A stretch of DNA of 14,938 bases from an uncultured Bacillota bacterium (lineage in GTDB: Bacteria > Bacillota_I > Bacilli_A > RF39 > UBA660), in contig CAJKKJ010000003.1 of NCBI GenBank assembly GCA_905200435.1, positions 1 to 14,938 of the forward strand, written 5' to 3'. Shown here piece after piece: positions 2,322-14,938 of this stretch. The translations under genes and the position numbers were made by a program. Position 1 is the first letter of the stretch, and each line of letters starts with the position of its first letter. Under the pieces are notes generated by a model, which saw only the letters and a list, made by a program, of their open reading frames with translations, ran no database searches and had not been told where the DNA came from.

Positions 2322-2403
2322 TTTAACAGGAATAAAAACAATCATGAAATCAAGTGAGATAACAAATAAATCAGTAGATTTTTACGTAGGAGAAAATATA
2401 TGA
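2311..2403 (+). CDS. Possible 30-residue linking ORF
   Basis: An open frame from ATG at 2311 to TGA at 2401-2403 bridges the 78-base gap between the two large genes. It overlaps the previous gene by 11 bases and meets the patatin start as ATGA. The predicted peptide starts MYSDLTGIKTIMKSSE and has codon use like its neighbours; an internal ATG lies at 2344. There is no clear Shine-Dalgarno before 2311, so translation would rely on reinitiation. It could equally be a decayed tail of the previous gene or chance. Confidence 0.25.
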   Translation: MYSDLTGIKTIMKSSEITNKSVDFYVGENI

Positions 2404-3452
2404 GAGCATTAGTATTATCTGGTGGTGGTCTAAAAGGATCATACCAAATAGGAGCATATAAAGCTTTAAAAAAATTAAAATATGATTTTGATATTGTAAC
2501 AGGAACATCAATAGGTGCAATAAATGGCGCATTTATAACTGCCAAAGAATATAAAAAGGCAATAGAATTATGGAAGAATGTCAAAATAGATTTTTTATTC
2601 ACAGAAAAAGTAAATGAAGATCTAATAGTTTTAGAATATTTAAGAAACATAATTGAAAACAAAGGAATGGATGTAAGTGCGTTAGAACAAAATGTTAATA
2701 AGTATCTAAATAAAAATAAGTTTTTTAAATCAAATATCAATTTTGGTTTAGTAACAGTAAACAAAAAAACTAAAAAGCCAAAATATATTGAAAAAAAGGA
2801 TCTAACAAAAGATAATTTAGTGGATTATTTAATGGCATCAGCATGTTTCTATCCAGTATTTCAAAGTAAAAAAATAGAAAATGATGAATATCTGGATGGA
2901 GGATACCATGATAATATGCCAGTAGATTTTGCAATTGAATTAGGTGCAGATGAAATAATTGCAATCGATCTAGAAGCAATAGGAATAAGAAAAAAAATAG
3001 AGGGAAATGCTAAAATAAAGTACATAAGACCAAATAACCCATTAGGAGCTGAAATGATTGTAAGCAATAAACAAGTTAGAAAAAACTTATGTTATGGATA
3101 CAATGATACAATGAAAGCATTTAATGAGTTAGATGGTAAAAAATATACATTTAAAAAAGGCGAATTAGAAAAATATCAAATCCGCTATAAAGAAGAATAC
3201 GAAAAAAAAGCTCATAAAAAGAAAAAAAATTATGAATTAACTAAAGAAGAATTAAGAAGAATCATTGAAAACTTATGCACAATACTAAAAATAGATGATA
3301 CAAAAATATATACAATAAAAAAATTAAATAACATAATAAAAAAGAAAATAAAGCAAAGAAATCTATTTGAAGAAGAAATCAAAAGAATAAATAAAAAAAC
3401 ACTTACATTTCCAGTAAATGACAAAATAGCGATTTATTTATCAATAATATGA
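2400..3452 (+). CDS. Patatin-like phospholipase
   Basis: 350 residues. Patatin-family serine lipases hydrolyse acyl esters of (phospho)lipids with a Ser-Asp dyad. The oxyanion-hole motif GGGLKG is at residues 8-13, the nucleophile elbow GTSIG places Ser37, and the DGG motif (D166-G167-G168) supplies the catalytic Asp, so the site is intact. The catalytic domain fills about residues 1-210. The remaining 140 residues are a lysine-rich, mainly helical extension of unknown role. There is no signal peptide, so it is probably a cytoplasmic or peripheral membrane enzyme. The Shine-Dalgarno is AGGAG just before the start. It is the last gene of the 308-3452 unit; no hairpin terminator is seen after it. 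Confidence 0.92.
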   Translation: MRALVLSGGGLKGSYQIGAYKALKKLKYDFDIVTGTSIGAINGAFITAKEYKKAIELWKNVKIDFLFTEKVNEDLIVLEYLRNIIENKGMDVSALEQNVNKYLNKNKFFKSNINFGLVTVNKKTKKPKYIEKKDLTKDNLVDYLMASACFYPVFQSKKIENDEYLDGGYHDNMPVDFAIELGADEIIAIDLEAIGIRKKIEGNAKIKYIRPNNPLGAEMIVSNKQVRKNLCYGYNDTMKAFNELDGKKYTFKKGELEKYQIRYKEEYEKKAHKKKKNYELTKEELRRIIENLCTILKIDDTKIYTIKKLNNIIKKKIKQRNLFEEEIKRINKKTLTFPVNDKIAIYLSII

Positions 3453-4462: not shown

Positions 4463-4483
4463 ACTAAATAGGAGATGACAAAA

Positions 4484-6958
4484 ATGAATTTTTTAAAGAA
4501 ACTATTCGATCATGAATATAAAGAATTAACACGTTTTAGCGCTATTGCTGATAATGTAATTGCACTAGAAGATGAATATAGTAAACTAACAGATGAAGAA
4601 TTAAAAGCAAAAACATTAGAATTTAAAAAAAGATTATCAGATGGCGAAACACTAGAAGATATTAAAGTTGAAGCCTTAGCAACAGTAAGAGAAGCATCAT
4701 ATAGAGTAATAGGTGAAAAACCATTTAAAACCCAAATACTATGTGCTTTAACACTACACTATGGCAATATAGCTGAAATGAAAACTGGTGAAGGTAAAAC
4801 TCTAGCTGGAGCTCAAGCGGCATATCTTAATGCCCTAGAAGGAAAAGGCGTTCACATAATAACAGTTAATGAATACCTTGCTGGACGTGATGCTGAATGG
4901 ATGGGAGGAATCCATAAGTTTTTAGGACTAACAGTAGGTGTAAACTATAGAGATTTAAGTCCAAAAGAAAAACAAGAAGTCTACAACTGTGATATTATGT
5001 ACTCAACAAATAATGAAATTGGATTTGACTATCTAAGAGACAATATGGTAATCAAAAAAGAAAATAGAGTACAAAGAGGACTTAATTTTGTAATAATCGA
5101 TGAAGCCGACTCAGTATTAATTGATGAAGCAAGAACACCATTAATAATATCTGGAGGTGTAATGCAATCAGCCAATTTATATAAAGATGCCGATAGATTT
5201 GCAAAAACATTAAAAGAAAATGATGGATATATATATGATGAAAAAACAAAAGCAGTTATGCTAGATGATAAAGGATGTGAGATGGCCGAAAAAATGTTTG
5301 GTTTATCAAACCTTTATGATATAAAAAATGCTAACCTTTTGCACTTCATAAATCAAGCTTTAAAAGCAAATTATGCTATGAAAAAAGATTTTGATTATGT
5401 TGTAAATAATGGTGAAGTATTAATTGTAGACCAGTTCACAGGAAGATTAATGAAAGGTCGTCAATTCTCGGAAGGCTTACACCAAGCAATTGAAGCAAAA
5501 GAAGGTGTTAGAATTAATGAGGAAACAAAAACACTAGCAACTATTACATTTCAAAACTTATTTAGAATGTATAATAAATTATCAGGTATGACAGGAACAG
5601 CAAAAACAGAAGAAGAAGAATTTAGAGAAATCTATAATATGTATGTAATCTGTATTCCAACAAATAAACCTGTAATAAGAATAGATTGTGGCGATTTATT
5701 ATATGCAACTAAAAAAGGTAAATATAAAGCAATTGTTGAAGAAATAAAACAAAGACATTTAAAAGGACAACCAGTATTAGTTGGTACTATAGCAGTTGAA
5801 ACAAGTGAATTAATAAGTGAAATGCTAAAAAAAGCTAAAATACCACATGAAGTATTAAATGCTAAAAACCACGAAAGAGAAGCTGAAATAATTGCGAAAG
5901 CCGGTGAAAAAGGAGCAGTTACTATTGCAACCAATATGGCTGGTCGTGGTACTGATATCAAATTAGGTGAAGGTGTAAAAGAACTTGGTGGTTTATTTGT
6001 TTTAGGAACAGAAAGACATGAATCAAGAAGAATAGATAATCAGTTAAGGGGACGTTCAGGAAGACAAGGTGACCCAGGTGAATCTCAATTCTGTGTATCA
6101 TTTGAAGATGACTTAATGGTAAGATTTGGTACAGACAGAGCTAAGGTAATGCTTCAAAACATGGGTTTTGATGATGACATGTCTATCAGAAACAGAATGC
6201 TATCAGGGACTATTGAATCTGCCCAAAAGAGAGTTGAAGGAAATAACTTCGATATAAGAAAGAATCTACTTCAATATGATGATGTAATCAGTGGTCAAAG
6301 AAAAATAATTTATGAAAAGAGAAATGAAATTCTAGATAGTGATTCTATTCATGAGATAGTATTAGATACATTCCATGAATATGCTAGAGAACTTGTAGAA
6401 AATCATACATCAATTGAAGGTCATATAAGTAAAGAAGCAGAAAGTGAACTTATAGAGTCTGTAAATGAATTATTAAGAAGAAAGATAACTGAGTTACCAA
6501 AAACAAAAGAAGAAATTATAGAGTATATAACAGATTGTTTTAAAAATGAATATAATGAAAAAATAAAAGATATTCCAACTGAAATAACAAATGAATTTGA
6601 AAAGGCTATCACTTTAAGGGTAATAGATACTCATTGGATGGATCATATTAATACAATGGCTCATCTAGAAGAAGGTATTGGTTTAAGAGGATATGCCCAA
6701 GAAAATCCAATAAGAGCATATACGCAAGAGGGATTTGAATTATTTGACAATATGTTAGATACAATTGATAAAGAAGTAACGACATATTTATTAAAAGCTG
6801 AAATAAGGCAAAATACTGAAAGAAAAGAAGTAGTAAAAGGTCATGCGGTAGATGGTAAGGAAAGTGCATCAAAACCTAAAAAGGTAGAAAAAGTAGGTAG
6901 GAACGACAAGTGCCCATGTGGTTCGGGAAAAAAATATAAGCAATGTTGTGGCAAATAG
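4484..6958 (+). CDS. secA: Preprotein translocase ATPase SecA
   Basis: 824 residues, normal length (Bacillus about 840). SecA binds preproteins at the membrane and drives them through SecYEG by ATP hydrolysis. It opens MNFLKKLFDHEYKEL; Walker A (MKTGEGKT) is near residues 101-108 and the DEAD-type Walker B (IDEADSVLIDEARTPLIISG) near 205; the preprotein cross-linking domain, second helicase lobe (TNMAGRGTDIKL, QLRGRSGRQGDPG) and helical scaffold follow. The tail DKCPCGSGKKYKQCCGK is the zinc-binding SEC-C motif. An ATG at 4475 lies directly against the GGAG at 4471-4474 and cannot use it; the ATG at 4484 has a 9-base spacing and is preferred. The usual next gene, prfB, is absent; foreign DNA follows. 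Confidence 0.98.
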   Translation: MNFLKKLFDHEYKELTRFSAIADNVIALEDEYSKLTDEELKAKTLEFKKRLSDGETLEDIKVEALATVREASYRVIGEKPFKTQILCALTLHYGNIAEMKTGEGKTLAGAQAAYLNALEGKGVHIITVNEYLAGRDAEWMGGIHKFLGLTVGVNYRDLSPKEKQEVYNCDIMYSTNNEIGFDYLRDNMVIKKENRVQRGLNFVIIDEADSVLIDEARTPLIISGGVMQSANLYKDADRFAKTLKENDGYIYDEKTKAVMLDDKGCEMAEKMFGLSNLYDIKNANLLHFINQALKANYAMKKDFDYVVNNGEVLIVDQFTGRLMKGRQFSEGLHQAIEAKEGVRINEETKTLATITFQNLFRMYNKLSGMTGTAKTEEEEFREIYNMYVICIPTNKPVIRIDCGDLLYATKKGKYKAIVEEIKQRHLKGQPVLVGTIAVETSELISEMLKKAKIPHEVLNAKNHEREAEIIAKAGEKGAVTIATNMAGRGTDIKLGEGVKELGGLFVLGTERHESRRIDNQLRGRSGRQGDPGESQFCVSFEDDLMVRFGTDRAKVMLQNMGFDDDMSIRNRMLSGTIESAQKRVEGNNFDIRKNLLQYDDVISGQRKIIYEKRNEILDSDSIHEIVLDTFHEYARELVENHTSIEGHISKEAESELIESVNELLRRKITELPKTKEEIIEYITDCFKNEYNEKIKDIPTEITNEFEKAITLRVIDTHWMDHINTMAHLEEGIGLRGYAQENPIRAYTQEGFELFDNMLDTIDKEVTTYLLKAEIRQNTERKEVVKGHAVDGKESASKPKKVEKVGRNDKCPCGSGKKYKQCCGK

Positions 6959-6975
6959 CCCATAAAATAAGGGCT
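6957..6975 (+). terminator. Weak hairpin after secA
   Basis: AGCCC (6957-6961) and GGGCT (6971-6975) can pair around a 9-base loop, starting in the secA stop codon. No T tract follows, so termination here is doubtful; the strong hairpin at 7121-7146 is the better stop. Confidence 0.25.
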
Positions 6976-7019
6976 TGTGAGATTTTGAAAAGTTCAAAAA
7001 AGTGCTAAAAATAGCAAAA

Positions 7020-7041
7020 TGTTTGCAATTTGTTTGCAAAC
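7020..7041. repeat. Left att-like repeat
   Basis: It contains GTTTGCA twice at an 11-base period (7021-7027, 7032-7038); the second copy is part of the perfect palindrome GTTTGCAAAC (7032-7041). Bases 7020-7039 recur exactly at 14795-14814. A further inverted copy, ATGCAAACATT, lies at 7096-7106 and also recurs at the right end (14785-14795). This could be a core attachment site or recombinase arm sites. Confidence 0.5.
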
Positions 7042-7120
7042 AAAAAAATTTGAAAACAAAATCGTCGAAAAGCCTTGTAAAATAAGGAAATCTCTATGCA
7101 AACATTTTTGTAAATAATAT

Positions 7121-7146
7121 AAAGTTGGCATTTGTGCCAACTTTTT
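7121..7146 (+). terminator. Strong hairpin terminator before the integrase remnant
   Basis: AAAGTTGGCA (7121-7130) pairs perfectly with TGCCAACTTT (7135-7144) around TTTG, followed by T to 7146. The A run on the left flank makes it potentially active in both directions. It isolates secA from the acquired genes. Confidence 0.85.
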
Positions 7147-7180
7147 CATTTACTCAATTGTAAATGGAGGAGAGATTATT

Positions 7181-7353
7181 ATGGCTGATGTAACAGTTCA
7201 AAAAAGAGGAGAAGTATATCAATATAAATTTGAAATTGTTTCAATCGATGGAAAAGAAAATTTAAAAATAAGTCAGGATTCGCAACAAAAAGCGAAGCAA
7301 AACAAGCAGGTATCATTGCATACAATGAGTATTTGAATACTGGACATAGTTTT
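7181..7353 (+). pseudogene. Tyrosine recombinase N-terminal fragment, frameshifted
   Basis: Good Shine-Dalgarno (GGAGGAGA, 7166-7173) and ATG. The first 25 residues, starting MADVTVQKRGEVYQYKFEI, match the arm-type DNA-binding domain of Tn916/phage-type integrases as I know them. After GGAAAAGAA at 7250-7258 the frame is lost: the ATG frame runs only to a stop at 7334-7336 (51 codons), while the expected continuation (KRKFKNKSGFATKSEAKQAG, then YNEYLNTGHSFK) lies in the -1 frame up to about 7353. Loss of one A from a five-A run explains this. The catalytic domain is absent; the sequence passes straight into a hydrolase fragment. Confidence 0.8.
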
Positions 7354-7647
7354 AAATTCTTGCCTCTGTCGATTTTTGATAATATGGCATTTAATAAAAA
7401 GGATACTTTCATTTTAGAAAAATCAATGAAGAAACTAGATTTTAGTAATAAAGTACAAAAAATTAAATGTCCTACCATTATAGTGTGTGGAGAGAAAGAT
7501 AGTGCCAATATTAAATCAGCATATTATTTATCCGAAAATATAAAAAACGCAAAATTAAAAATTATTGAAAATACAGGACACGTTGTAAATGAAGAAAAAT
7601 CACAAATATTAGCAAAAGTTTTAGAGCAATTATATAAAGAATTTTAA
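7354..7647 (+). pseudogene. Alpha/beta hydrolase C-terminal fragment
   Basis: About 97 residues, in frame with the shifted integrase remnant and joined near 7354. It holds the last strands of an alpha/beta hydrolase: IKCPTIIVCGEKDSANI carries the catalytic-acid Asp and IIENTGHVVNEEKSQ carries the catalytic His. The N-terminal two thirds, with the nucleophile elbow, are missing, so it cannot be active. It has no start codon with a ribosome binding site. A product could arise only as an integrase-hydrolase chimera through a -1 frameshift. Confidence 0.8.
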
Positions 7648-7752
7648 AGTATAAAATACGAAAAGTTTATTTTTAAAATAATATATATTAAAATATATCT
7701 AAATAAGATTTATCTAAAAAATGTTATTCAATATATTTTGTTAAGTTTTGTA

Positions 7753-7761
7753 TGGTATAAT
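7753..7761 (+). promoter_or_regulatory. Extended -10 promoter of vanRS
   Basis: TGG followed by a perfect TATAAT (7756-7761), giving an extended -10. The -35 region is poor (a TTGTTA at 7738 is too close). Upstream, 7660-7735 is almost pure A/T, with TATCTAAA twice (7696-7703, 7711-7718); the 15-base step does not suit an OmpR-type dimer. This suggests constitutive or weakly regulated vanRS expression. Confidence 0.6.
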
Positions 7762-7804
7762 TAGTATGTATTGTTAATTTAAAACTTGTGGAAGGGAGAG
7801 GAAG

Positions 7805-8494
7805 ATGAATAAAATTTTAGTTGTAGATGATGAAAAGGAAATAGCAGATTTAGTTGAATTATATTTGAAAAATGAAAATTATACAGTTTATAAATATTAT
7901 TCTGCTAAAGAAGTGCTTGATAATATTGATAATTTAAGTGTAGATTTAGCAATTTTAGATGTTATGATGCCTGAAATTGATGGATTTATGCTATGCAATA
8001 AAATTAGAGAAAAATATACTTTCCCGATTATTTTTGCAACTGCAAAAGTAGAAGAAATTGATAAAATAAATGGCTTGATGATAGGAGCAGATGACTATGT
8101 AACAAAACCTTTTCAACCTTTGGAATTGATTGCAAGAGTAAAAGCACAGTTAAGAAGAAGTCAAAAGTATAATAATTCAAATCAAAAAGAAAATGTAATT
8201 GATTTTAGAGGGATACTTATAAATAAAGATACTCACGAATTTTATTTCAACGAAAAAAAGGTCGAACTAACAAAAATAGAATTTGAAATATTATGGCTAT
8301 TATGCGAAAACAGAGGAAAAGTAATTAAAACAGATGAATTATTTTCTAAAGTATGGGGAAGTAAATATTTTGAAAAAGATAACAATACTGTAATGGTACA
8401 TATTAGACATTTAAGAGAAAAAATGAATGATATTGAAAAGAAGCCAAAATATATAAAAACAGTTTATGGAGTGGGGTATAAAATTGAGAAGTAA
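7805..8494 (+). CDS. vanR: VanR-type OmpR/PhoB-family response regulator
   Basis: 229 residues, full length. The receiver domain (1-115) has the acidic pair D8-D9, phospho-acceptor Asp52 (LAILDVMMPEIDG), Thr79 and Lys101 (VTKPF), all intact. The C-terminal winged helix (about 130-229) has the PhoB-type ELTKIEFEIL-like start and ends HIRHLREKMN...YIKTVYGVGYKIEK. It should activate the resistance operon when phosphorylated by VanS; the likely target is the repeat array at 9598-9637. The Shine-Dalgarno AGGGAGAGGAAG precedes the ATG. The 3' end overlaps vanS. Naming as VanR rests on the cluster and on the paired kinase. Confidence 0.93.
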   Translation: MNKILVVDDEKEIADLVELYLKNENYTVYKYYSAKEVLDNIDNLSVDLAILDVMMPEIDGFMLCNKIREKYTFPIIFATAKVEEIDKINGLMIGADDYVTKPFQPLELIARVKAQLRRSQKYNNSNQKENVIDFRGILINKDTHEFYFNEKKVELTKIEFEILWLLCENRGKVIKTDELFSKVWGSKYFEKDNNTVMVHIRHLREKMNDIEKKPKYIKTVYGVGYKIEK

Positions 8495-9596
8495 AAAAAA
8501 TAAATTATTGAAAAAAACATTTATAAATTTTGTAATAAAAATATTGGTATTGTCTATATGTATGCCATTTGGTATTTTACTTTTGGTGGCACTAATTGAT
8601 AGGCTAAGTTTTCAATGGCTATATGATATTTCACCGGAAGTTTACAACAATTTTAGAGAATTTTTTTACAGCATAACAGACCTTAGAACTCTTATAATTC
8701 CTATACTAATAATTTGGGTAATTGGAACATTAGTGCTACTATATAGATTATTAAAGAAAGTTTTTGGATATATTGATGAAGTTGGAAAGGCAACTGAAGA
8801 TTTAGTAAATAAAGATGTTGAATATATTGAATTACCAGATGAATTAGAAGAAATCCAAAAGCGTATGAATCACTTAAAAAGAGAATCAGAGAAAAATGAA
8901 AAATTAGCTAAAGAAAATGAAGAAAAGAAAGATGAGTTAATAGTTTATTTAGCCCACGATATTAAGACACCTTTAACATCAATGATAGGTTATTTATCAA
9001 TTTTAGATGAAATAGATGATATGCCAAAAAAGAAACAAAAAAATTATATTTCTATTGCATTAGATAAATCATATAGATTAGAAGATTTAATCAATGAGTT
9101 ATTTGATGTAGCTAGATTTAATTCCGAAAAAATTGTTTTAGAAAAAGAAGAATTAAATCTTAACTTGATGTTGGAACAAATAATTGATGATTTCTATCCC
9201 ACTTTACGAGAAGTAAATAAGAGTATTAAATTAAATTATGATGAGCCAATCAGTATAAATGGTGATTCAGATAAATTAAGTAGAGTATTTAATAATCTTA
9301 TAAAAAATGCTATTAGTTATAGTAAAGAAGAAAGTGAAATTGTAATCAATTTGAAAAAAGATAATAATAATGCAATTGTTGAAGTAATAAACAAAGGGAA
9401 ACAAATATCAAAAGAAAAATTAAGTAAAATATTTGAGAAGTTTTATAGACTAGACTCTGCAAGAACATCAAGAACAGGTGGAAGTGGATTAGGTCTTGCC
9501 ATTGCAAAAGACATAGTTGAATTACATAACGGAACAATAATTGCCGAAAGTAATGAGGAAGAAACAACTTTCCGAGTTACATTACCATTAAAATAA
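8484..9596 (+). CDS. vanS: VanS-type membrane sensor histidine kinase
   Basis: 370 residues from a proposed TTG start. Transmembrane segments at about 14-38 and 67-90 flank a short external loop of about 30 residues; a linker and coiled coil (about 100-150) lead to the H-box LAHDIKTPLTSMIGYLSILDE (His158), N-box NLIKNAISYS, and the F/G2 region FYRLDSARTSRTGGSGLGLAIAKDIVELHNG. All catalytic motifs are intact. An in-frame ATG at 8466 lies deep within vanR, before the GGAGTGGGG at 8468-8476; TTG at 8484, 7 bases after that Shine-Dalgarno, is the better start. It overlaps vanR by 11 bases. It should sense glycopeptide and phosphorylate VanR. A hairpin terminator follows. Confidence 0.93.
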   Translation: MRSKKNKLLKKTFINFVIKILVLSICMPFGILLLVALIDRLSFQWLYDISPEVYNNFREFFYSITDLRTLIIPILIIWVIGTLVLLYRLLKKVFGYIDEVGKATEDLVNKDVEYIELPDELEEIQKRMNHLKRESEKNEKLAKENEEKKDELIVYLAHDIKTPLTSMIGYLSILDEIDDMPKKKQKNYISIALDKSYRLEDLINELFDVARFNSEKIVLEKEELNLNLMLEQIIDDFYPTLREVNKSIKLNYDEPISINGDSDKLSRVFNNLIKNAISYSKEESEIVINLKKDNNNAIVEVINKGKQISKEKLSKIFEKFYRLDSARTSRTGGSGLGLAIAKDIVELHNGTIIAESNEEETTFRVTLPLK

Positions 9597-9597
9597 A

Positions 9598-9637
9598 TTT
9601 AAGAAGAATTTAAGATTTATTTAAGATAGAATTAAAG
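9598..9637 (+). promoter_or_regulatory. Probable VanR operator: TTTAAGA repeats, 11-bp period
   Basis: TTTAAGA occurs exactly at 9598-9604, 9609-9615 and 9620-9626, each start 11 bases after the last. Degenerate copies keep the phase on both sides: ATTAAAG (9631-9637) and ATTAAAA (9587-9593, across the vanS end). Direct heptamers one helical turn apart are the known binding pattern of OmpR/PhoB-family regulators, and the array abuts the -35 position of the vanW promoter. Binding by this VanR is inference. Confidence 0.7.
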
Positions 9638-9663
9638 AACAATCATTCATAAATCAGTATAAT
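9635..9663 (+). promoter_or_regulatory. Activator-dependent promoter of vanW-vanT operon
   Basis: A perfect TATAAT lies at 9658-9663; 17 bases upstream the -35 position is AAGAAC (9635-9640), a poor match. A weak -35 with regulator repeats ending against it is typical of a class II activated promoter. The start would be at about 9670, leaving a 46-base leader. Confidence 0.6.
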
Positions 9664-9695
9664 TTAATTGTATTGATTTGAATGATTGTTTTTTT
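9638..9695 (+). terminator. Hairpin terminator of vanRS with the next promoter in its loop
   Basis: AACAATCATTC (9638-9648) pairs with GAATGATTGTT (9680-9690), and inside it AAATCA (9651-9656) pairs with TGATTT (9674-9679) after a 2-base bulge. The loop is 9657-9673. T to 9695 completes a Rho-independent terminator. The vanW -10 box lies in the loop, so RNA started from that promoter lacks the left arm and escapes termination. Confidence 0.7.
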
Positions 9696-9715
9696 GTTGA
9701 TTGGAGGTGCTGCAA

Positions 9716-10534
9716 ATGGCAAGAAAAAGGTTAACACAATTATTTCCATTTTTATTACCATTACGAATATGGCAAAGGAACTTATTTTATCAAATTGGAA
9801 TGAAGTTTGACGGAAATAAGTATTCTAAAAGTTTTGGAGAAAAATTAAAATATGAAGTTTGTAAGACTAAAACATTGATGATAAACGAAAATAGTGGATA
9901 CGATATTATTTATCAAAAAAACAAGGTCGAAAACTTAAAAATAGCAAGTAAAACTATGAATCATATTTTAATATATCCTAATGAAACATTTTCCTTTTGT
10001 TATTTAGTTAGAAACAGTAAAAAGTACGGAAAATATAAAGATGGTTTGATATTGGTAGATGGAAAAATAGTAGCAAAAAAAGGTGGAGGGCTTTGTCATT
10101 TAAGTAATTTGTTACATTATCTATTTTTAATGAGTCCGCTTACAGTTACTGAAAGGCACGGACATAAAGTAAAATCTTTTCCTAATCCAGATAAATCTTC
10201 TTTAGAAGGAATTGACGCAACAATTAGTAGTGGTTGGTTAGATTTAAAAGTAAAAAATGAAACTAACAATATATATCAAATAGACATTTCATTTGATGAA
10301 GATTATATGTATGGGAAAATATTATCAAATAGTGAATCAAATGTTGATTATAAGATAGTAAATGGAAATTTAAAGTATGTCAAAGAAAACGAAAATATTT
10401 ATGAATGCGTTGAAGTTATAAGAGTTGAAATAGGCAAGAAAACAAGAAAAGAAATCAGAAAAGAGAAATTATATGATGAGAAAGTTCTTATTGAATATGA
10501 ATTGCCAAGTGATGTTAAAGTAGAGGAGATGTGA
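9716..10534 (+). CDS. vanW: VanW family protein
   Basis: 272 residues. VanW proteins accompany VanB and VanG clusters; their biochemical role is not established. The family core is present: a stretch beginning IASKTMNHILIYPNETFSF, then GKIVAKKGGGLCHLSNLLHYL with the conserved GGG-L-C segment, and TERHGHKVKSF...GIDATI. The N-terminus (ARKRLTQLFPFLLPLRIWQRN) is basic and amphipathic, with no clear signal peptide. The GGAGG at 9703-9707 lies 8 bases before the ATG at 9716; a TTG at 9701 precedes it in frame and is rejected. First gene of the inducible unit; its stop overlaps a GTG that precedes the vanG start. Confidence 0.92.
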   Translation: MARKRLTQLFPFLLPLRIWQRNLFYQIGMKFDGNKYSKSFGEKLKYEVCKTKTLMINENSGYDIIYQKNKVENLKIASKTMNHILIYPNETFSFCYLVRNSKKYGKYKDGLILVDGKIVAKKGGGLCHLSNLLHYLFLMSPLTVTERHGHKVKSFPNPDKSSLEGIDATISSGWLDLKVKNETNNIYQIDISFDEDYMYGKILSNSESNVDYKIVNGNLKYVKENENIYECVEVIRVEIGKKTRKEIRKEKLYDEKVLIEYELPSDVKVEEM

Positions 10535-10539
10535 TTTTT

Positions 10540-11580
10540 ATGAAAAAAACAGTAGCAATTTTATTTGGAGGGTGTTCAAGTGAATATGATGTATCACTTG
10601 TATCTGCAACTTCCGTAATTAAAAATATCAAAAAAGATAAGTACAATTTATTGATGATTGGAATTACAAGAGATGGGGATTTTTATTTATATAATGGTGA
10701 TGTAAATAATATTGAAAAAGATGAATGGTTAAATGAAAAAGATACCAAACGAATTACAATTTCAACAAATAGAAGTGATCACGGAATTATAGTTTTAGAA
10801 ACAAATGAAATTATTCAAATTGATGTTGCTTTTCCAGTATTGCACGGTCAAAACGGAGAAGATGGAAGATTACAAGGACTATTGGAACTTGCAGGAATAA
10901 AATATGTTGGGTGTGATATGACTTCATCTGCGATATGTATGGACAAGTATTTAGCCCACGAAATTGTTTCTTCAAATGGTTATTTATCACCTATATCTTA
11001 TTTATTTAATGAAAAAGATAGTTACGAGATGATAGAAAATAAAATTTGTAACTTACATTTTCCATTGTTTGTAAAACCTTTGAAAGCAGGATCATCTTTT
11101 GGTATTACAAAAATAAAAACAATAAGCAAATTAAAAGAAGCATTAAAAGAAGCATTTAAGTATGATAATAAAGTGATTATAGAAGAAAATGTAGATGGAT
11201 TTGAAGTTGGATGTGCTGTATTAGGAACAGATAAATTAATAATTGGTGAAGTGGATGAAATAGAGTTAGAAGATGGCTTCTTTGATTATTTTGAAAAATA
11301 CAATTTGAAAACAAGTAAAATACATTTACCTGCAAGAATTAGTAAAGAAGAAAGAGAAAGAATTAAAGATACTGCTCTTGCTATTTACAAAATATTAGGT
11401 TGTAGTGGTTTTGCCAGAGTTGATATGTTTTACACAAAAGATAAAAAAATCGTCTTCAATGAAGTAAATACTATTCCGGGCTGCACATCACATTCAAGAT
11501 ACCCTAGTATGTTAAAAGAAATTGGTATTCCTTTTGAAGAAGTTATTGATCGTTTAATTGAATTGGGGTGGGATAAATGA
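10540..11580 (+). CDS. vanG: D-Ala-D-Ser ligase, VanG type
   Basis: 346 residues. ATP-grasp ligase that joins D-Ala to D-Ser, giving peptidoglycan precursors with low affinity for vancomycin. The N-terminus VAILFGGCSSEYDVSL is VanG-like (Glu15 matches the first D-Ala-binding Glu of Ddl). Ddl-type ATP-grasp motifs follow: FPLFVKPLKAGSSFGITKI, EENVDGFEVG and FNEVNTIPGCTSHSRYPSML. The omega-loop region near residue 250 reads FEKYNLKTSKIHLPARI; it is not the EKYQ of D-Ala-D-Lac ligases (VanA/B/D) but resembles the VanG type, so D-Ser is expected. A GTG at 10531 is in frame, but GAGGAG (10523-10528) suits the ATG at 10540 better. It overlaps vanXY by ATGA. Confidence 0.93.
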   Translation: MKKTVAILFGGCSSEYDVSLVSATSVIKNIKKDKYNLLMIGITRDGDFYLYNGDVNNIEKDEWLNEKDTKRITISTNRSDHGIIVLETNEIIQIDVAFPVLHGQNGEDGRLQGLLELAGIKYVGCDMTSSAICMDKYLAHEIVSSNGYLSPISYLFNEKDSYEMIENKICNLHFPLFVKPLKAGSSFGITKIKTISKLKEALKEAFKYDNKVIIEENVDGFEVGCAVLGTDKLIIGEVDEIELEDGFFDYFEKYNLKTSKIHLPARISKEERERIKDTALAIYKILGCSGFARVDMFYTKDKKIVFNEVNTIPGCTSHSRYPSMLKEIGIPFEEVIDRLIELGWDK

Positions 11581-12311
11581 AAAATATAACTTTAAAAAAA
11601 GAAGATATTGGAAAAGGAGAATTAGTCCTTATTAATCCAGATTATACATTGAAAAGTACAATAAATAATCTAGTATCCTTTGATGAAGAATACAACAATA
11701 TCAAATTAAATAATATTGCAAATTATTCTTTACACTTAATACTGAATAATATAAATGCTGAAAATAAAATAGTCCCTGTAAGTGGGTATAGAACACTTGA
11801 AGAACAAAAAGATATATATAATACATCTTTAAAAGAGAATGGCAGAGAATATACGCAAAAATATGTTGCACTACCTAATGCTAGTGAACATCAAACAGGT
11901 TTGGCAATAGATTTAGCATTAAATGAGGAAAATATTGATTTTATTTGTCCTAAGTTTCCTTATTATGGTATATGCCAAAGTTTTAGAAATATTGCTCCAA
12001 AATATGGATTTATTGAGCGATATAAAGACGAAAAGAAAGCAATCACGAAAATATCAAAAGAAGAGTGGCATTTTCGATATGTTGGTTATCCACATTCAAA
12101 AATAATAACAGAAAAAGATATTTGTTTAGAAGAATATATAGATTTTTTGAAAGATTTTATATATCCAAATAATCCTTTAATTTATGAAGAATATAAGATA
12201 TTTTTCATTCCTTATAAAGACGAAAGTATTAGTTTAGAGGTGGAGGAAAATTATAATATCTCTGGAAACAATGTTGATGGATTTATTTTAACTATCAAAG
12301 GAGAAAAATAA
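11577..12311 (+). CDS. vanXY: D,D-peptidase VanXY
   Basis: 244 residues, VanY/peptidase M15 fold. VanXY proteins hydrolyse D-Ala-D-Ala and trim the terminal D-Ala from precursors, leaving D-Ala-D-Ser in place. Zinc ligands and base are visible: SEHQTGLAID gives His105 and Asp112 and EEWHFRYVG gives Glu162 and His165, with the same 7- and 3-residue spacings as in VanX. The conserved VSGYRTLEEQ is near residue 65. No signal peptide or membrane segment is seen, fitting the cytoplasmic VanXY form. About 55 residues beyond the catalytic core (from about 190) form a beta-rich tail. It starts inside the vanG stop codon and ends TAATG, sharing one base with the next gene. Confidence 0.93.
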   Translation: MKNITLKKEDIGKGELVLINPDYTLKSTINNLVSFDEEYNNIKLNNIANYSLHLILNNINAENKIVPVSGYRTLEEQKDIYNTSLKENGREYTQKYVALPNASEHQTGLAIDLALNEENIDFICPKFPYYGICQSFRNIAPKYGFIERYKDEKKAITKISKEEWHFRYVGYPHSKIITEKDICLEEYIDFLKDFIYPNNPLIYEEYKIFFIPYKDESISLEVEENYNISGNNVDGFILTIKGEK

Positions 12312-13306
12312 TGAGTAAAAAAATAAATATTGATATATGGAGATTTATAGTATCGTTCTTGATTGTTGCTATACATATTTCACCATTTGCCAAAATTAGT
12401 CCTGAATTTGATTTCTTCTTTACAAGAATATTAGGAAGAATAGCAGTTCCTTTATTTCTAATGATAACTGGATATTATATATTAGACAGGGCTTTAAAAG
12501 ATAAACAAGTTTTAGTTGACTATACAAAGAAAATACTAAAAATTTATCTTCTTTGCATATTACTTTATTTACCAATAAATATTTATATGGGTAGTTTTAA
12601 GAACATTGATATTATTACAATATTAAAAGATTTTTTTATAAATGGAACATTATATCATTTATGGTATTTTCCAGCACTTATTGTTGGAGTGTGGATTACA
12701 TATTATTTAGTTAAAAAATTAGGACGAAAAAAGGCTTTAATTGCAACGATATTATTATACATAATAGGTGTGTTTGGAGATAGTTATTATGGCATAACTA
12801 TTATGAATCAGATTACAAAAAATATATATGAATTAATTTTTAATATTTTTGATTATACGAGAAATGGCTTATTCTATGTACCAATATTTATATGTTTAGG
12901 ACATATTATAAAGGCAGGCACAAGAAAAACTACAAAGTTTGATTTATTGTATGCTTTATTATTCTTTATTCTTATGAGTGTGGAAGGAAGTATTTTACAT
13001 TATTATAATTTACAAAGACACGATAGTATGTATTTATTTTTACTTCCGCTTATGTACTTCTTGTTTTGCTATTTAATGGATCATAGTAAAACATCAAATA
13101 AGAAAATAAAAAATATTGCAACATATATTTATATTTTCCACCCACTTTTTATTGTAGGAATTAGGTTTGTTTCTGGCATTATTGGAATGGATAAAATATT
13201 TGTTGAAAATAATTTAATACTTTATCTGTTGGTTTGTATAACAACAACAATATTTGCCTTTTTAATAGAAAAAATAAAGGAAGTAGTAAAAAATGAAAGA
13301 AAATAA
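12311..13306 (+). CDS. vanTm: VanT membrane half: acyltransferase-3-type integral membrane protein
   Basis: 331 residues with about ten hydrophobic segments (roughly 8-26, 43-62, 75-95, 115-135, 140-155, 185-200, 210-225, 240-255, 268-285, 300-320). The start KKINIDIWRFIVSFLIVAIHISPF, with a His in the first segment, is the acyltransferase_3 signature and the N-terminal domain of VanT. In fused VanT this part is proposed to bring L-serine to the racemase. Here it ends in a stop and the racemase is a separate protein, as with vanTm/vanTr of the VanL cluster. Shine-Dalgarno AAAGGAG at 12297-12303; one-base overlap with vanXY and 14-base overlap with the racemase gene in another frame. Confidence 0.88.
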   Translation: MSKKINIDIWRFIVSFLIVAIHISPFAKISPEFDFFFTRILGRIAVPLFLMITGYYILDRALKDKQVLVDYTKKILKIYLLCILLYLPINIYMGSFKNIDIITILKDFFINGTLYHLWYFPALIVGVWITYYLVKKLGRKKALIATILLYIIGVFGDSYYGITIMNQITKNIYELIFNIFDYTRNGLFYVPIFICLGHIIKAGTRKTTKFDLLYALLFFILMSVEGSILHYYNLQRHDSMYLFLLPLMYFLFCYLMDHSKTSNKKIKNIATYIYIFHPLFIVGIRFVSGIIGMDKIFVENNLILYLLVCITTTIFAFLIEKIKEVVKNERK

Positions 13307-14426
13307 TTTGTTAAAAGACAGAGCGTGGATTGAAATTGATTTAGATAATTTAGTAAATAATATAAGTGAAATAAAAAAAATAATTTCTCCAAAGACAAAG
13401 ATAATGGCAGTTGTAAAAGCAAACGCTTATGGACACGGGGCATTATTAACAGCAAGAAAATTATCAGAAATTGGTATAACTGATTTTGCAGTGGCTACAT
13501 TAGAAGAAGGTATATATTTAAGAAAAAATAATATACAAGGTAATATCTTAATATTAGGTTTTACTAATTTTGATGATTTAAAATATGTTATGAAATATGA
13601 TTTAATTCAAACTATTATAGACTATGATTATTCTGAAAAGATAAAAGAGTTAAATTTTAATGAAAAGTTAAAATGCCATATAAAAATAAATACTGGTATG
13701 AATAGATTAGGAGAAAAATATAATCATTTAGATAAATTATATAAGATTTACGAAAATGAAAAATTAAATATTTTAGGAACATTTAGTCATTTATGCGTTG
13801 CAGATTCTAACACAAAAGAAGATATTGATTTTACTAACCGACAAATAGAATTATTTAATGAAACTATAAAAAGAATTAAAACAAAAGGATATGATACTGG
13901 AAAAGTGCATTTACAGAGTAGTTATGGTGTAATAAATTATACTGGATTAGACTATGATTATGTGCGAGTTGGTATTCTTATGTATGGAATAAATAGTTCA
14001 TACGAGTCATATCAATTAATACATTTGAACTTAAAACCTGTTTTGTCATTGAAAGCCAGAATTACAAGTGTAAAAGAAATAAATAAAAACGATTCTGTTA
14101 GTTATGGAAGAACATATATTGCAACAGAAAATAGAAAAATTGCCTCTGTATCAATAGGATATGCAGATGGAATACCGAGAAATTTATCTAACAAAAATAT
14201 GCAAGTCAAAATAAATGAAAGTTATGGCACTGTAATAGGTAGAATTTGTATGGATCAATTACTAATTGATATTTCTGATATATCAAATGTAAAAGTTGGA
14301 GATATTATAACAATTATAGGAGAAGATAAGAATATTACTGCTGAACAAGTCGCTGATAAAGCAGATACTATTACAAATGAATTGCTATGCAGACTTGGAG
14401 ACAGACTAGCAAGAATTATTGTCTGA
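13293..14426 (+). CDS. vanTr: VanT racemase half: serine/alanine racemase
   Basis: 377 residues, the length of a free alanine racemase. Fold type III PLP enzyme; should make D-serine from L-serine for VanG. The PLP lysine is Lys42 in VVKANAYGHG; DYVRVGILMYG, VSYGRTYIA (catalytic Tyr region) and GRICMDQLLIDIS follow. In alanine racemases the segment C-T-I-S-Y-R carries Tyr354; here the equivalent reads C-R-L-G-D-R, so Asp370 replaces that Tyr. VanT of E. faecalis has Asn696 at the site governing serine use, so Asp supports a serine-adapted enzyme but differs from it. A separate AAAGGAAG ribosome site (13276-13283) shows true gene splitting rather than a sequencing frameshift. Confidence 0.9.
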   Translation: MKENNLLKDRAWIEIDLDNLVNNISEIKKIISPKTKIMAVVKANAYGHGALLTARKLSEIGITDFAVATLEEGIYLRKNNIQGNILILGFTNFDDLKYVMKYDLIQTIIDYDYSEKIKELNFNEKLKCHIKINTGMNRLGEKYNHLDKLYKIYENEKLNILGTFSHLCVADSNTKEDIDFTNRQIELFNETIKRIKTKGYDTGKVHLQSSYGVINYTGLDYDYVRVGILMYGINSSYESYQLIHLNLKPVLSLKARITSVKEINKNDSVSYGRTYIATENRKIASVSIGYADGIPRNLSNKNMQVKINESYGTVIGRICMDQLLIDISDISNVKVGDIITIIGEDKNITAEQVADKADTITNELLCRLGDRLARIIV

Positions 14427-14432
14427 TTTTTT
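14402..14432 (+). terminator. Possible terminator of the van operon
   Basis: CAGAC (14402-14406) and GTCTG (14421-14425) can pair around a 14-base loop, followed by six T (14427-14432). The stem is short and lies in the last codons of the racemase, so this is tentative. Confidence 0.35.
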
Positions 14433-14450
14433 GGAAAGAATTTATTAAAA

Positions 14451-14657
14451 ATGAGATATAAATACGAATGTATAAATAAGATATTAACAAATGGAATTGA
14501 AATAAGAGATGTTGCAGATATACTTGGACATAGAAATGTAGAAACAACAGAAAATTATTATATTTCAAGTACAGAAAAATCTAAACGATTAGCAACTGAT
14601 GTTTTTGATAAGATAACAAAATCTGAAATTATAGAAGAAATTATTAAATATAAATAA
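14451..14657 (+). pseudogene. Tyrosine recombinase C-terminal fragment
   Basis: 68 codons ending at a TAA, open back to the racemase stop at 14426 in the same frame. GIEIRDVADILGHRNVETTENYY matches box II of tyrosine recombinases: the His of LGH and the nucleophile Tyr nine or ten residues on. The catalytic Arg-Lys-His-x-x-Arg part and all N-terminal domains are missing, and no ribosome binding site precedes the ATG, so it is a dead remnant. It may be the far end of the integrase whose start is at 7181, or come from another one; the middle of the protein is nowhere in the window. Confidence 0.8.
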
Positions 14658-14684
14658 TTAAATATAAATAATTGGATAGATCCA

Positions 14685-14713
14685 TTGATAAAAACAAATA
14701 TTTATAGTATAAT
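14685..14713 (+). promoter_or_regulatory. Strong sigma-A-type promoter reading out of the element
   Basis: TTGATA (14685-14690), a 17-base spacer and a perfect TATAAT (14708-14713). No gene starts within the remaining 225 bases, so any target lies beyond the right edge of the window. Confidence 0.6.
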
Positions 14714-14715
14714 AA

Positions 14716-14740
14716 ATGTGCAAAAATACAAAATGCACAT
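14716..14740. promoter_or_regulatory. Inverted repeat just after the promoter (possible operator)
   Basis: ATGTGCA (14716-14722) and TGCACAT (14734-14740) are perfect inverted arms around an 11-base A-rich spacer, centred near the predicted start of transcription. The centre-to-centre distance of 18 bases suits a repressor dimer; as RNA it could also form a 7-bp stem. Confidence 0.4.
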
Positions 14741-14769
14741 TGGTAAATATATGATATAGATAGTATAAT
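14740..14769 (+). promoter_or_regulatory. Second tandem promoter candidate
   Basis: TTGGTA (14740-14745), an 18-base spacer and a perfect TATAAT (14764-14769), sharing the local context TAGTATAAT with the first promoter 56 bases upstream. The -35 match is moderate. Confidence 0.4.
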
Positions 14770-14784
14770 GACTGTAGTAAATGA

Positions 14785-14814
14785 ATGCAAACATTGTTTG
14801 CAATTTGTTTGCAA
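14785..14814. repeat. Right att-like repeat
   Basis: It carries the inverted repeat TGCAAAC-ATT-GTTTGCA (14786-14802) and a second GTTTGCA at 14807-14813, 11 bases on. Bases 14795-14814 equal 7020-7039, and ATGCAAACATT (14785-14795) equals 7096-7106. The two shared blocks are in opposite order at the two ends. Confidence 0.5.
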
Positions 14815-14840
14815 GAGAGAAATATTTATAATAACAAAAG

Positions 14841-14931
14841 TACTATAAATATTATAAATATAATAGGTTACCAAAACGATAAAGCCTTGAAATATCAATA
14901 ATATTATAAATATTATAAGTATTATAAATAT
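14841..14931. repeat. AT-rich 9-bp direct repeats
   Basis: TATTATAAA or one-base variants are tandemly repeated at 14841-14858 (two copies) and 14902-14928 (three copies, followed by TAT). Between them lies an AAAGCCTTG (14881-14889) that is also found at 7069-7077 near the left repeat. No gene is seen from 14658 to the window end; apart from these repeats and the promoter and att-like sites, nothing else is recognisable there. Confidence 0.5.
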
Positions 14932-14938
14932 GGGAGTT

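What the first reader, a model, noticed from the sequence alone, without database searches (positions are those of the whole stretch)
7805..14426. Complete VanG-type D-Ala-D-Ser cluster in a low-GC chromosome, with vanT split in two and no vanU or vanY
All functions needed for inducible D-Ala-D-Ser resistance are present with intact motifs: VanR, VanS, VanW, VanG ligase, VanXY, membrane VanT and racemase VanT. The enterococcal VanG operon has a fused VanT and extra genes (vanU, vanY) not seen here. A split VanT is known from the VanL cluster; here the split occurs next to VanW and a VanG-like ligase, a mosaic order. A separate ribosome site for the racemase argues that the split is real.
Basis: partly seen in the sequence, partly recalled or inferred. 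Interest (0 to 1): 0.7.

Follow-up and report, generated by a model that had tools for sequence, protein, structure and literature searches.

The report
Transplanted VanG cluster with split VanT
An uncultured low-GC bacterium carries a standard-looking vancomycin-resistance gene set (VanG type, with its serine racemase made as two proteins) that it shares almost unchanged with a distant class of bacteria and that sits inside a broken mobile element beside the secA gene.

Summary
In detail: vanR-S-W-G-XY-Tm-Tc at 7805-14426, every gene open. The ligase passes the VanG cut-off, lies apart from sampled host-order Ddl in a tree and has the EKY loop of D-Ser ligases. The vanT split is real: 16 of 54 distinct ligase loci mapped have separate membrane and racemase ORFs. 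'Complete' needs a qualifier: the three closest relatives carry a vanZ-like ORF after vanTc that is missing here. New in this work: a 7.1-kb block (7347-14445) is 96% identical to a Clostridia genome, while the window's SecA (Bacilli-like) is at most 60% identical to that genome's. The block lies between two remnants of an integrase gene, in an element parked after secA. I infer that SEC-C codons at the end of secA are the attachment site: the window's right end matches elements that stop at SEC-C codons elsewhere. Function (inducible D-Ala-D-Ser resistance) is inferred; the source of the block is open. Known kind of system; interesting vehicle and transfer.

The parts
6917..6958 (+). SEC-C codons (CGSGKKYKQCCGK) and stop at the 3' end of secA (4475-6958); presumed left attachment site
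   Evidence: Sequence; SEC-C codons recur at the right ends of elements in L199, L204 and L001; presumption, not shown
7020..7039 (+). 20-bp repeat, left copy: TTTGCAA twice at 11-bp period; arm-type integrase site (inferred)
   Evidence: Exact second copy at 14795; 0.01 expected with up to 3 mismatches; 11-bp-period repeats after secA in 14 of 39 stretches, window included
7181..7346 (+). 5' remnant of a tyrosine integrase gene, frame disturbed
   Evidence: 71.7% DNA identity to L001 integrase over 7181-7299, 66.7% (110 of 165) over 7181-7346; the 37-aa piece 7181-7291 gave no Pfam hit
7347..14445 (+). Inserted block
   Evidence: 96.4% identical over 7,099 aligned positions to L001:2818-9915
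7333..7647 (+). ORF over the 3' remnant of an alpha/beta hydrolase gene
   Evidence: Weak Pfam match to the C-terminal end of Abhydrolase_1, under cut-off; whole gene at L001:2495-3118
7805..8494 (+). vanR
   Evidence: NF033117 363.7 bits, cut-off 350
8466..9596 (+). vanS (start codon uncertain; overlaps vanR)
   Evidence: HK_VanS best hit 367 bits, below cut-off 400; HisKA and HATPase_c
9598..9638 (+). TTTAAGA repeats at 9598, 9609, 9620 (11 bp) and a weaker fourth at 9632: putative VanR-binding sites
   Evidence: Only such triple in the window, both strands, one mismatch allowed; spacing 11,11,12 also in L001-L004, L006, L131
9634..9694 (+). Hairpin with T tract (terminator-like, end of vanRS) holding TATAAT at 9658-9663
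   Evidence: -26 kcal/mol, z -6.05, 0 of 200 shuffles; outer arms and T tract kept with few changes in the 8 aligned sequences, which were not folded one by one
9716..10534 (+). vanW
   Evidence: NF033128 402.4 bits, cut-off 365
10540..11580 (+). vanG, D-Ala-D-Ser ligase
   Evidence: NF000091 543 bits, cut-off 495; best solved structure 4fu0, 401.7 bits; EKY loop
11577..12311 (+). vanXY
   Evidence: Best NCBIfam vanXY_G 264.7 bits, below cut-off 500; best solved structure 4f78, 261 bits
12311..13306 (+). vanTm, membrane (acyltransferase-3) part of VanT
   Evidence: PF01757; N-terminal half of the vanT-CELN model; conserved residues in 28 aligned VanT membrane parts
13293..14426 (+). vanTc, serine racemase part of VanT
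   Evidence: NF033131 522.7 bits, cut-off 460; 4ecl 358.4 bits; KANAYGHG and ITNELL present
14451..14657 (+). 3' remnant of the tyrosine integrase gene
   Evidence: PF00589 24.3 bits, under the cut-off 27.1; 68% protein identity to the L001 integrase over 59 residues
14795..14814 (+). 20-bp repeat, right copy
   Evidence: in L001 the same place holds a GTCCACA pair of equal period
14815..14938 (+). Right end of the island (inferred); window stops at ATGGGAGTT, just before the presumed right attachment site
   Evidence: 14656-14938 is 68% identical (191 of 281) to L001's end; same terminal stretch in L199

Best explanation
This is a VanG-type D-Ala-D-Ser glycopeptide-resistance cluster. Inferred working: VanS senses the drug or wall stress and phosphorylates VanR; VanR binds the 11-bp TTTAAGA repeats and switches on vanW-G-XY-Tm-Tc from the promoter beside the vanRS terminator; VanTc makes D-serine from L-serine; VanTm, a separate membrane protein, supplies serine or does an acyl-transfer step; VanG joins D-Ala to D-Ser; VanXY removes D-Ala-ending precursors. 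The split of VanT is probably ancestral in this low-GC clade, with the two parts made from overlapping genes. In this genome the cluster is an insert: a 7.1-kb block, nearly identical to DNA in Clostridia genomes, lies between two remnants of the integrase gene of an element sitting after secA in a Bacilli-like host. With its integrase broken, the island is probably not mobile by itself. Shown: gene content, kinship, split, block edges, flanking integrase pieces. Inferred: activity, inducibility, attachment site, immobility, and the donor.
For: Family scores and best solved structures 4fu0, 4f78, 4ecl. Ligase tree: window with VanG-like rows, 14 of 14 host-order Ddl rows given form their own group (SH-aLRT 97); EKY loop shared with VanC and VanN, those Ddl rows have AKY or SKY, VanA and VanB have HQE...EKGSEN. 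Split ORFs in 16 of 54 distinct loci mapped and in one 27-row group (17 split with the window, 9 without Tm, 1 fused). Block 96.4% identical to L001, while SecA of L001's and L002's genomes is 60% identical over its first 500 residues and 43-46% over the rest; SecA of L015's and L004's genomes is 72% and 71% over the whole length, the best of 146 genomes of that order 75%. No SecA match was scored in L003's genome. The L001 contig's threonyl-tRNA synthetase is 76-79% identical in three genomes of its own family and 58-61% in four Bacilli-like ones. Differences from L001 lie mostly at third codon positions in the six genes compared (all but vanS), e.g. vanXY 2,1,20. Flanking 20-bp repeat, integrase parts on both sides, element right end. 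Nine of nine genomes checked have transpeptidases and Ddl-family ligases.
Against: No MIC, precursor or expression data. VanS, VanXY and VanTm fall below NCBI's curated cut-offs. Whether the vanG cluster of C. difficile confers resistance is called unclear (PMC11326576, passages). The host assembly is not held, so neither the host's own Ddl and MurF nor the DNA beyond 14938 could be read. The ThrRS check is not clean: two genomes of other families in L001's order are only 45-53% identical, below the Bacilli-like ones, and one genome of the same genus as G001 (G338) gave no strong match. Class labels rest on titles of metagenome-derived records. Direction of transfer is not resolved. The split group's base is weakly supported (87/99, open).
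Confidence: 0.82

Rival explanations
1. The cluster is genuine but silent or decayed cargo: it confers little or no resistance in this host, as is debated for the vanG cluster of C. difficile.
For: Insert cut off on both sides (hydrolase truncated, vanZ-like ORF missing); a near-identical copy in L003 is damaged in vanG and vanTm and carries a transposase ORF; C. difficile precedent called unclear, with overexpression linked to lower susceptibility (PMC11326576, passages).
Against: All seven genes are open; substitutions against L001 concentrate at third codon positions in the six genes compared; VanR-box-like repeats and promoter/terminator region intact.
Confidence: 0.3
2. The van block beside secA is a metagenome assembly chimera.
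For: The window's own assembly is not held and its kin are metagenome-derived; abrupt identity change at 7347 and 14445.
Against: The two parts of one integrase gene lie left and right of the block, and the two ends carry the same 20-bp repeat: a chimera would not be expected to give both. Base composition is alike across the joins.
Confidence: 0.07
3. The vanT split is a frameshift artefact or a programmed frameshift giving one fused protein.
For: The two frames overlap at an A-rich stretch; other VanG clusters have a fused VanT (8 of 54 loci).
Against: Frames differ in 13 of 13 relatives printed, with differing junction sequences; vanTc has its own ATG and SD-like AAAGGAAG; racemase without matched VanTm in 10 of 54 loci.
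Confidence: 0.03

Closest known systems
VanG operon of Enterococcus faecalis BM4518 (PMC4405338, passages)
   Same: Ligase family, order vanW-vanG-vanXY-vanT, VanRS with a separate resistance promoter
   Different: No vanU or vanY here; VanT made as two proteins
VanL cluster of E. faecalis (vanTm and vanTr are named in a figure legend of PMC11597547, passages; that they are VanL's, and its gene order, are recalled)
   Same: VanT in two genes, membrane part first
   Different: Racemase and ligase score far lower with VanL models than with VanG models; VanL has no vanW and its regulators follow the resistance genes (recalled)
VanG-type clusters of uncultured Clostridia L001-L003
   Same: Same genes in the same order; 95-97% identical in DNA over the shared stretches
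   Different: A vanZ-like ORF follows vanTc; L003 is damaged in vanG and vanTm
Tyrosine integrases beside secA or SEC-C codons (whole in L001; L039, L040, L169 and others)
   Same: Related integrase soon after secA, or element ending at SEC-C codons
   Different: In the window the integrase gene is in two remnants around the van block

Membership tests
VanG-type D-Ala-D-Ser cluster | Ligase of the VanG family | tested here: met
   NF000091 543 bits against cut-off 495; tree
VanG-type D-Ala-D-Ser cluster | vanW-vanG-vanXY-vanT order behind vanRS | tested here: met
   published order
VanG-type D-Ala-D-Ser cluster | Serine racemase of the VanT-G type | tested here: met
   NF033131 522.7 bits, cut-off 460; ITNELL as in most VanT rows
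VanG-type D-Ala-D-Ser cluster | VanXY-G D,D-peptidase | tested here: inconclusive
   Best hit but 264.7 bits against cut-off 500; 4f78 best structure
VanG-type D-Ala-D-Ser cluster | vanU and vanY genes of the E. faecalis operon | tested here: not met
   No such ORF. Only G, XY and T are strictly required for resistance (PMC4405338), so I do not treat these genes as defining for the type
VanG-type D-Ala-D-Ser cluster | Low-level inducible vancomycin resistance with D-Ser-ending precursors | not testable with these tools
   Needs the organism
VanL-type cluster | VanL ligase and VanT-L subunits | tested here: not met
   VanL ligase 328.3 bits (cut-off 750); VanT-L membrane 176 (675); VanT-L catalytic 283.3 (750)
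Integrative element (tyrosine integrase) | Intact integrase gene | tested here: not met
   Two remnants only
Integrative element (tyrosine integrase) | Flanking attachment sites | tested here: inconclusive
   SEC-C codons on the left; window stops just short of the presumed right site

The most novel reading that the evidence does not exclude
A family of tyrosine integrases targets SEC-C codons (at secA in the Bacilli-like order, at another SEC-C gene in one Clostridia genome). The elements carry near their ends pairs of short repeats at 11-bp period whose letters differ between elements (TTTGCAA, GTCCACA, GTCTACA, TAGATCA and others); in the window, the one case where both ends were read, the pair is the same left and right. 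Because the SEC-C motif is conserved across classes, the site serves as a shared docking point through which cargo such as VanG clusters crosses between Bacilli-like and Clostridia bacteria.
Probability: 0.5. Interest if true: 0.55.

Novelty: new member of a known kind. Interest (0 to 1): 0.38.

Why it matters
It shows a nearly unchanged vancomycin-resistance cluster shared between two bacterial classes of uncultured bacteria, and shows that the two-protein VanT is ordinary in these lineages. Separate VanTm and VanTc genes, with VanTm apparently lost in several lineages, are natural material for asking what the membrane half of VanT does, a function described as not considered so far (PMC12423673, passages).

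Tried and rejected
Considered and rejected: mosaic VanG/VanL cluster (order is the VanG one; VanL models score low); ligase as ordinary Ddl; frameshift artefact; phage or plasmid origin (no megablast match of 6900-14938 in 50,697 phage records; racemase and ligase matches in plasmids all under 60% identity).

Led nowhere: the window's own assembly is not held; the 18-base core of the repeat was in none of the 165 loci then held, but it is in L166, fetched later from G176, a host-order genome; no Pfam hit for the integrase 5' piece; literature searches on vanG in such uncultured lineages and on SEC-C or secA as integration site listed nothing to the point; the 2015 VanT structure paper is not held, so the role of the Asn in ITNELL is recalled. 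The nearest kin by DNA was 74-76% identical among 260 genomes scored of 385, so no same-species empty site was seen.

Rows dropped or not given: L140 and L141 repeat L001 and L003; L152 and L154 (broken vanT ORFs) were not given to the racemase tree; L003 and L016 not to the ligase tree, and 14 of the 22 Ddl-like loci L060-L081 were; 2 of 44 secA stretches were duplicates and 3 of the remaining 42 too short for the lag test. The secA stretches are best-scoring loci, not a random sample. Results against a tidy story: only 14 of 42 secA stretches, window included, show an integrase, and within their reach (1.5 kb or less, longer for the window) only L166 (same genome as L204) shows a second SEC-C copy. 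Of the eight longer stretches fetched, six (L197, L198, L200-L203; 3.2 to 20 kb) showed only secA's own SEC-C copy, two (L199, L204) a further one.
Full report
What is there. Seven genes run head to tail on the + strand: vanR, vanS, vanW, vanG, vanXY, vanTm, vanTc (families). The ligase, VanW, VanR and the racemase pass NCBI's curated cut-offs for Van families; VanS, VanXY and the membrane part are best hits below theirs. The ligase and racemase also pass generic D-Ala ligase and alanine racemase models at lower scores. The closest solved structures are 4fu0, 4f78 and the serine racemase 4ecl (that 4fu0 and 4f78 are E. faecalis VanG and VanXY-G is recalled, the listing calls them D-alanine--D-alanine ligase 7 and D,D-dipeptidase/D,D-carboxypeptidase). 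No vanU- or vanY-like ORF lies in the cluster.

Ligase. In a tree of 65 ligases (quick method, SH-aLRT only) the window row sits among VanG-like rows; the 14 Ddl rows that I gave from the host's order, of 22 such loci held, form their own group (97). Two rows that I had labelled vanG-like from more distant genomes (L157, L158) fall with Ddl, and two (L159, L160) fall with VanA and VanB, so those labels were too generous. In the specificity loop the window reads EKYN; VanC and VanN read EKYQ; the Ddl rows AKY or SKY; VanA and VanB HQE...EKGSEN. That EKY marks D-Ser ligases is recalled and agrees with this table. L015, L128 and L130 read KKY and may differ.

The split. Of 56 loci mapped, 54 are distinct; not all are VanG proper. 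Sixteen have membrane and racemase parts on separate ORFs (L003's membrane part is damaged), one more is ambiguous (L152), eight are fused and one is fused but broken (L154), ten have the racemase without a matched membrane part, five the membrane part without a matched racemase (some at contig ends) and thirteen neither (some at contig ends, nine of them the distant ligase loci L157-L165). Frames differ in all 13 junctions printed. In the racemase tree (39 rows) 27 low-GC rows group together: 17 split including the window, 9 without VanTm, 1 fused (L134); the group's base is only moderately supported (87/99, drawn open). The other rows lie outside: ten fused (clostridial and enterococcal) and two without VanTm (L156, L210). 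One origin of the split with repeated loss of VanTm is the simplest reading; L134 may be a re-fusion. NCBI holds a model named 'serine racemase VanT catalytic subunit' (vanT-G-Cterm), which suggests that lone VanT-G racemases are known to its curators. A database search with VanTm, whose length limits exclude fused VanT, matched 1300 proteins, 120 listed; the weaker ones may be other acyltransferases.

Regulation. Between vanS and vanW lie three TTTAAGA repeats at 11-bp spacing and a weaker fourth after 12, one mismatch allowed. It is the only such triple in the window. Of 11 relatives compared, L001-L004, L006 and L131 have the same 11,11,12 spacing, L129 has 11,11, L127 and L130 one pair at 11, L015 and L128 none. 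Next to it is a hairpin with a T tract (z -6.05) whose outer arms and T tract are kept with few changes in the 8 aligned sequences, holding TATAAT. I read this as the end of vanRS and the start of the resistance transcript. In E. faecalis three 12-bp putative VanR sites lie in the resistance promoter region (PMC4405338, passages).

Origin. The block 7347-14445 is 96.4% identical to L001 over 7,099 aligned positions; L002 and L003 match from 7795 and 7805 at 95-97%. All three are Clostridia by record title. SecA of the window is 72% identical to L015's genome and 71% to L004's (both Bacilli by title) over its whole length, but 60% over the first 500 residues and 43-46% over the rest to the genomes of L001 and L002; L003's genome gave no scored match. 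The best of 146 genomes of that Bacilli-like order is 75%. The L001 contig's own threonyl-tRNA synthetase is 76-79% identical in three genomes of L001's family (G001, G449, G004) and 58-61% in four Bacilli-like genomes, as expected of a Clostridia contig; but two genomes of other families of the same order reach only 53% and 45%, and G338, same genus as G001, has no strong match. So a near-identical cluster occurs in two classes. The window's copy is the inserted one: its edges cut a hydrolase gene and lie in an integrase gene. Whether it came from Clostridia directly is not resolved. A second cross-class pair, L006 (Tenericutes by title; its genome falls in the order of G045) and L131 (G449, same genus as G001), is sister in both trees. 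VanG-like ligases are sporadic: 8 of 288 genomes in the Bacilli-like order at 56% identity or more; 14 of 287 in the Clostridia order at E <= 1e-100, identities 54-98%.

Where it sits. In L001 the hydrolase gene left of vanR is whole and a vanZ-like ORF follows vanTc. In the window the hydrolase is cut at 7347 and the vanZ-like ORF is missing; instead integrase remnants flank the block: the 5' part at 7181-7346, the 3' part at 14451-14657. The stretch after secA is an integration hotspot in this order: 14 of 42 distinct stretches, window included, hold a related integrase (34 of the 42 are 700 nt or longer), and 14 of 39 have a repeat of 7 bases or more at 11-bp lag against 0.56 on average in shuffles (largest 3) and 0-3 at the seven other lags tested. 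The window's 20-bp repeat is of this kind and has an exact copy near the right end; in L001 the same right-end place holds a GTCCACA pair. The last bases of the window match the right ends of L001 and L199, where SEC-C codons follow at once; L204 has a second SEC-C copy 990 nt after secA's. I infer that SEC-C codons are the attachment site and that the window stops just before the right one. The L001 integrase carries an Arm-DNA-bind_4 domain, which fits arm-type repeats.

Function. Nine of nine genomes checked (seven Bacilli-like, two Clostridia) have transpeptidases and a Ddl-family ligase over the cut-off beside any van ligase (in G034 in two pieces of one frame), so a wall target is likely in the host, which itself could not be checked. 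The inferred steps are the textbook D-Ala-D-Ser route. What VanTm does is open: a serine transporter (PMC6182600, passages) or an acyltransferase fold of unrecognised function (PMC12423673, passages). Resistance itself is untested, and whether the vanG cluster of C. difficile gives it is called unclear (PMC11326576, passages).

Verdict. A real VanG-type cluster with a real but ordinary split; the surprising part is the near-identical sharing between classes and the secA island that holds it.

Noticed in passing
6958-7181 and secA-downstream stretches of L036-L043, L166-L220: Stretch after secA is an integration hotspot with 11-bp-period repeat pairs whose letters differ between genomes (14 of 39).
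   Followed up: partly
L204:195 and 1185; L199 near 16273 (- strand); L001:16795: SEC-C codons at the right ends of elements; in L199 and L001 joined to the element's own short start (MGV...CGSGKKYK); in L204 a second copy 990 nt after secA's.
   Followed up: partly
L003:10951-12520 and 13354-14260: A near-identical Clostridia copy of the cluster has a DDE transposase ORF between two parts of vanG and a damaged vanTm.
   Followed up: no
L013, L014, L129, L130: Four racemases without VanTm have PEL in place of the NEL of VanT rows near the C-terminus, perhaps a changed substrate; L007, L133, L138, L142, L144 and L156 keep NE, L210 has QE.
   Followed up: no
L134 (G405): One fused VanT lies inside the mostly split group: re-fusion or old state.
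   Followed up: no
L133, L138, L142, L144: Loci with VanG-like ligase and lone racemase but no matched vanXY, vanTm or vanW.
   Followed up: no
L015, L128: VanG-like ligase with KKY instead of EKY and no matched vanT nearby: perhaps another specificity.
   Followed up: no
2400-3452; 1185-2321: A patatin-like phospholipase and a 378-aa protein without Pfam match left of secA.
   Followed up: no
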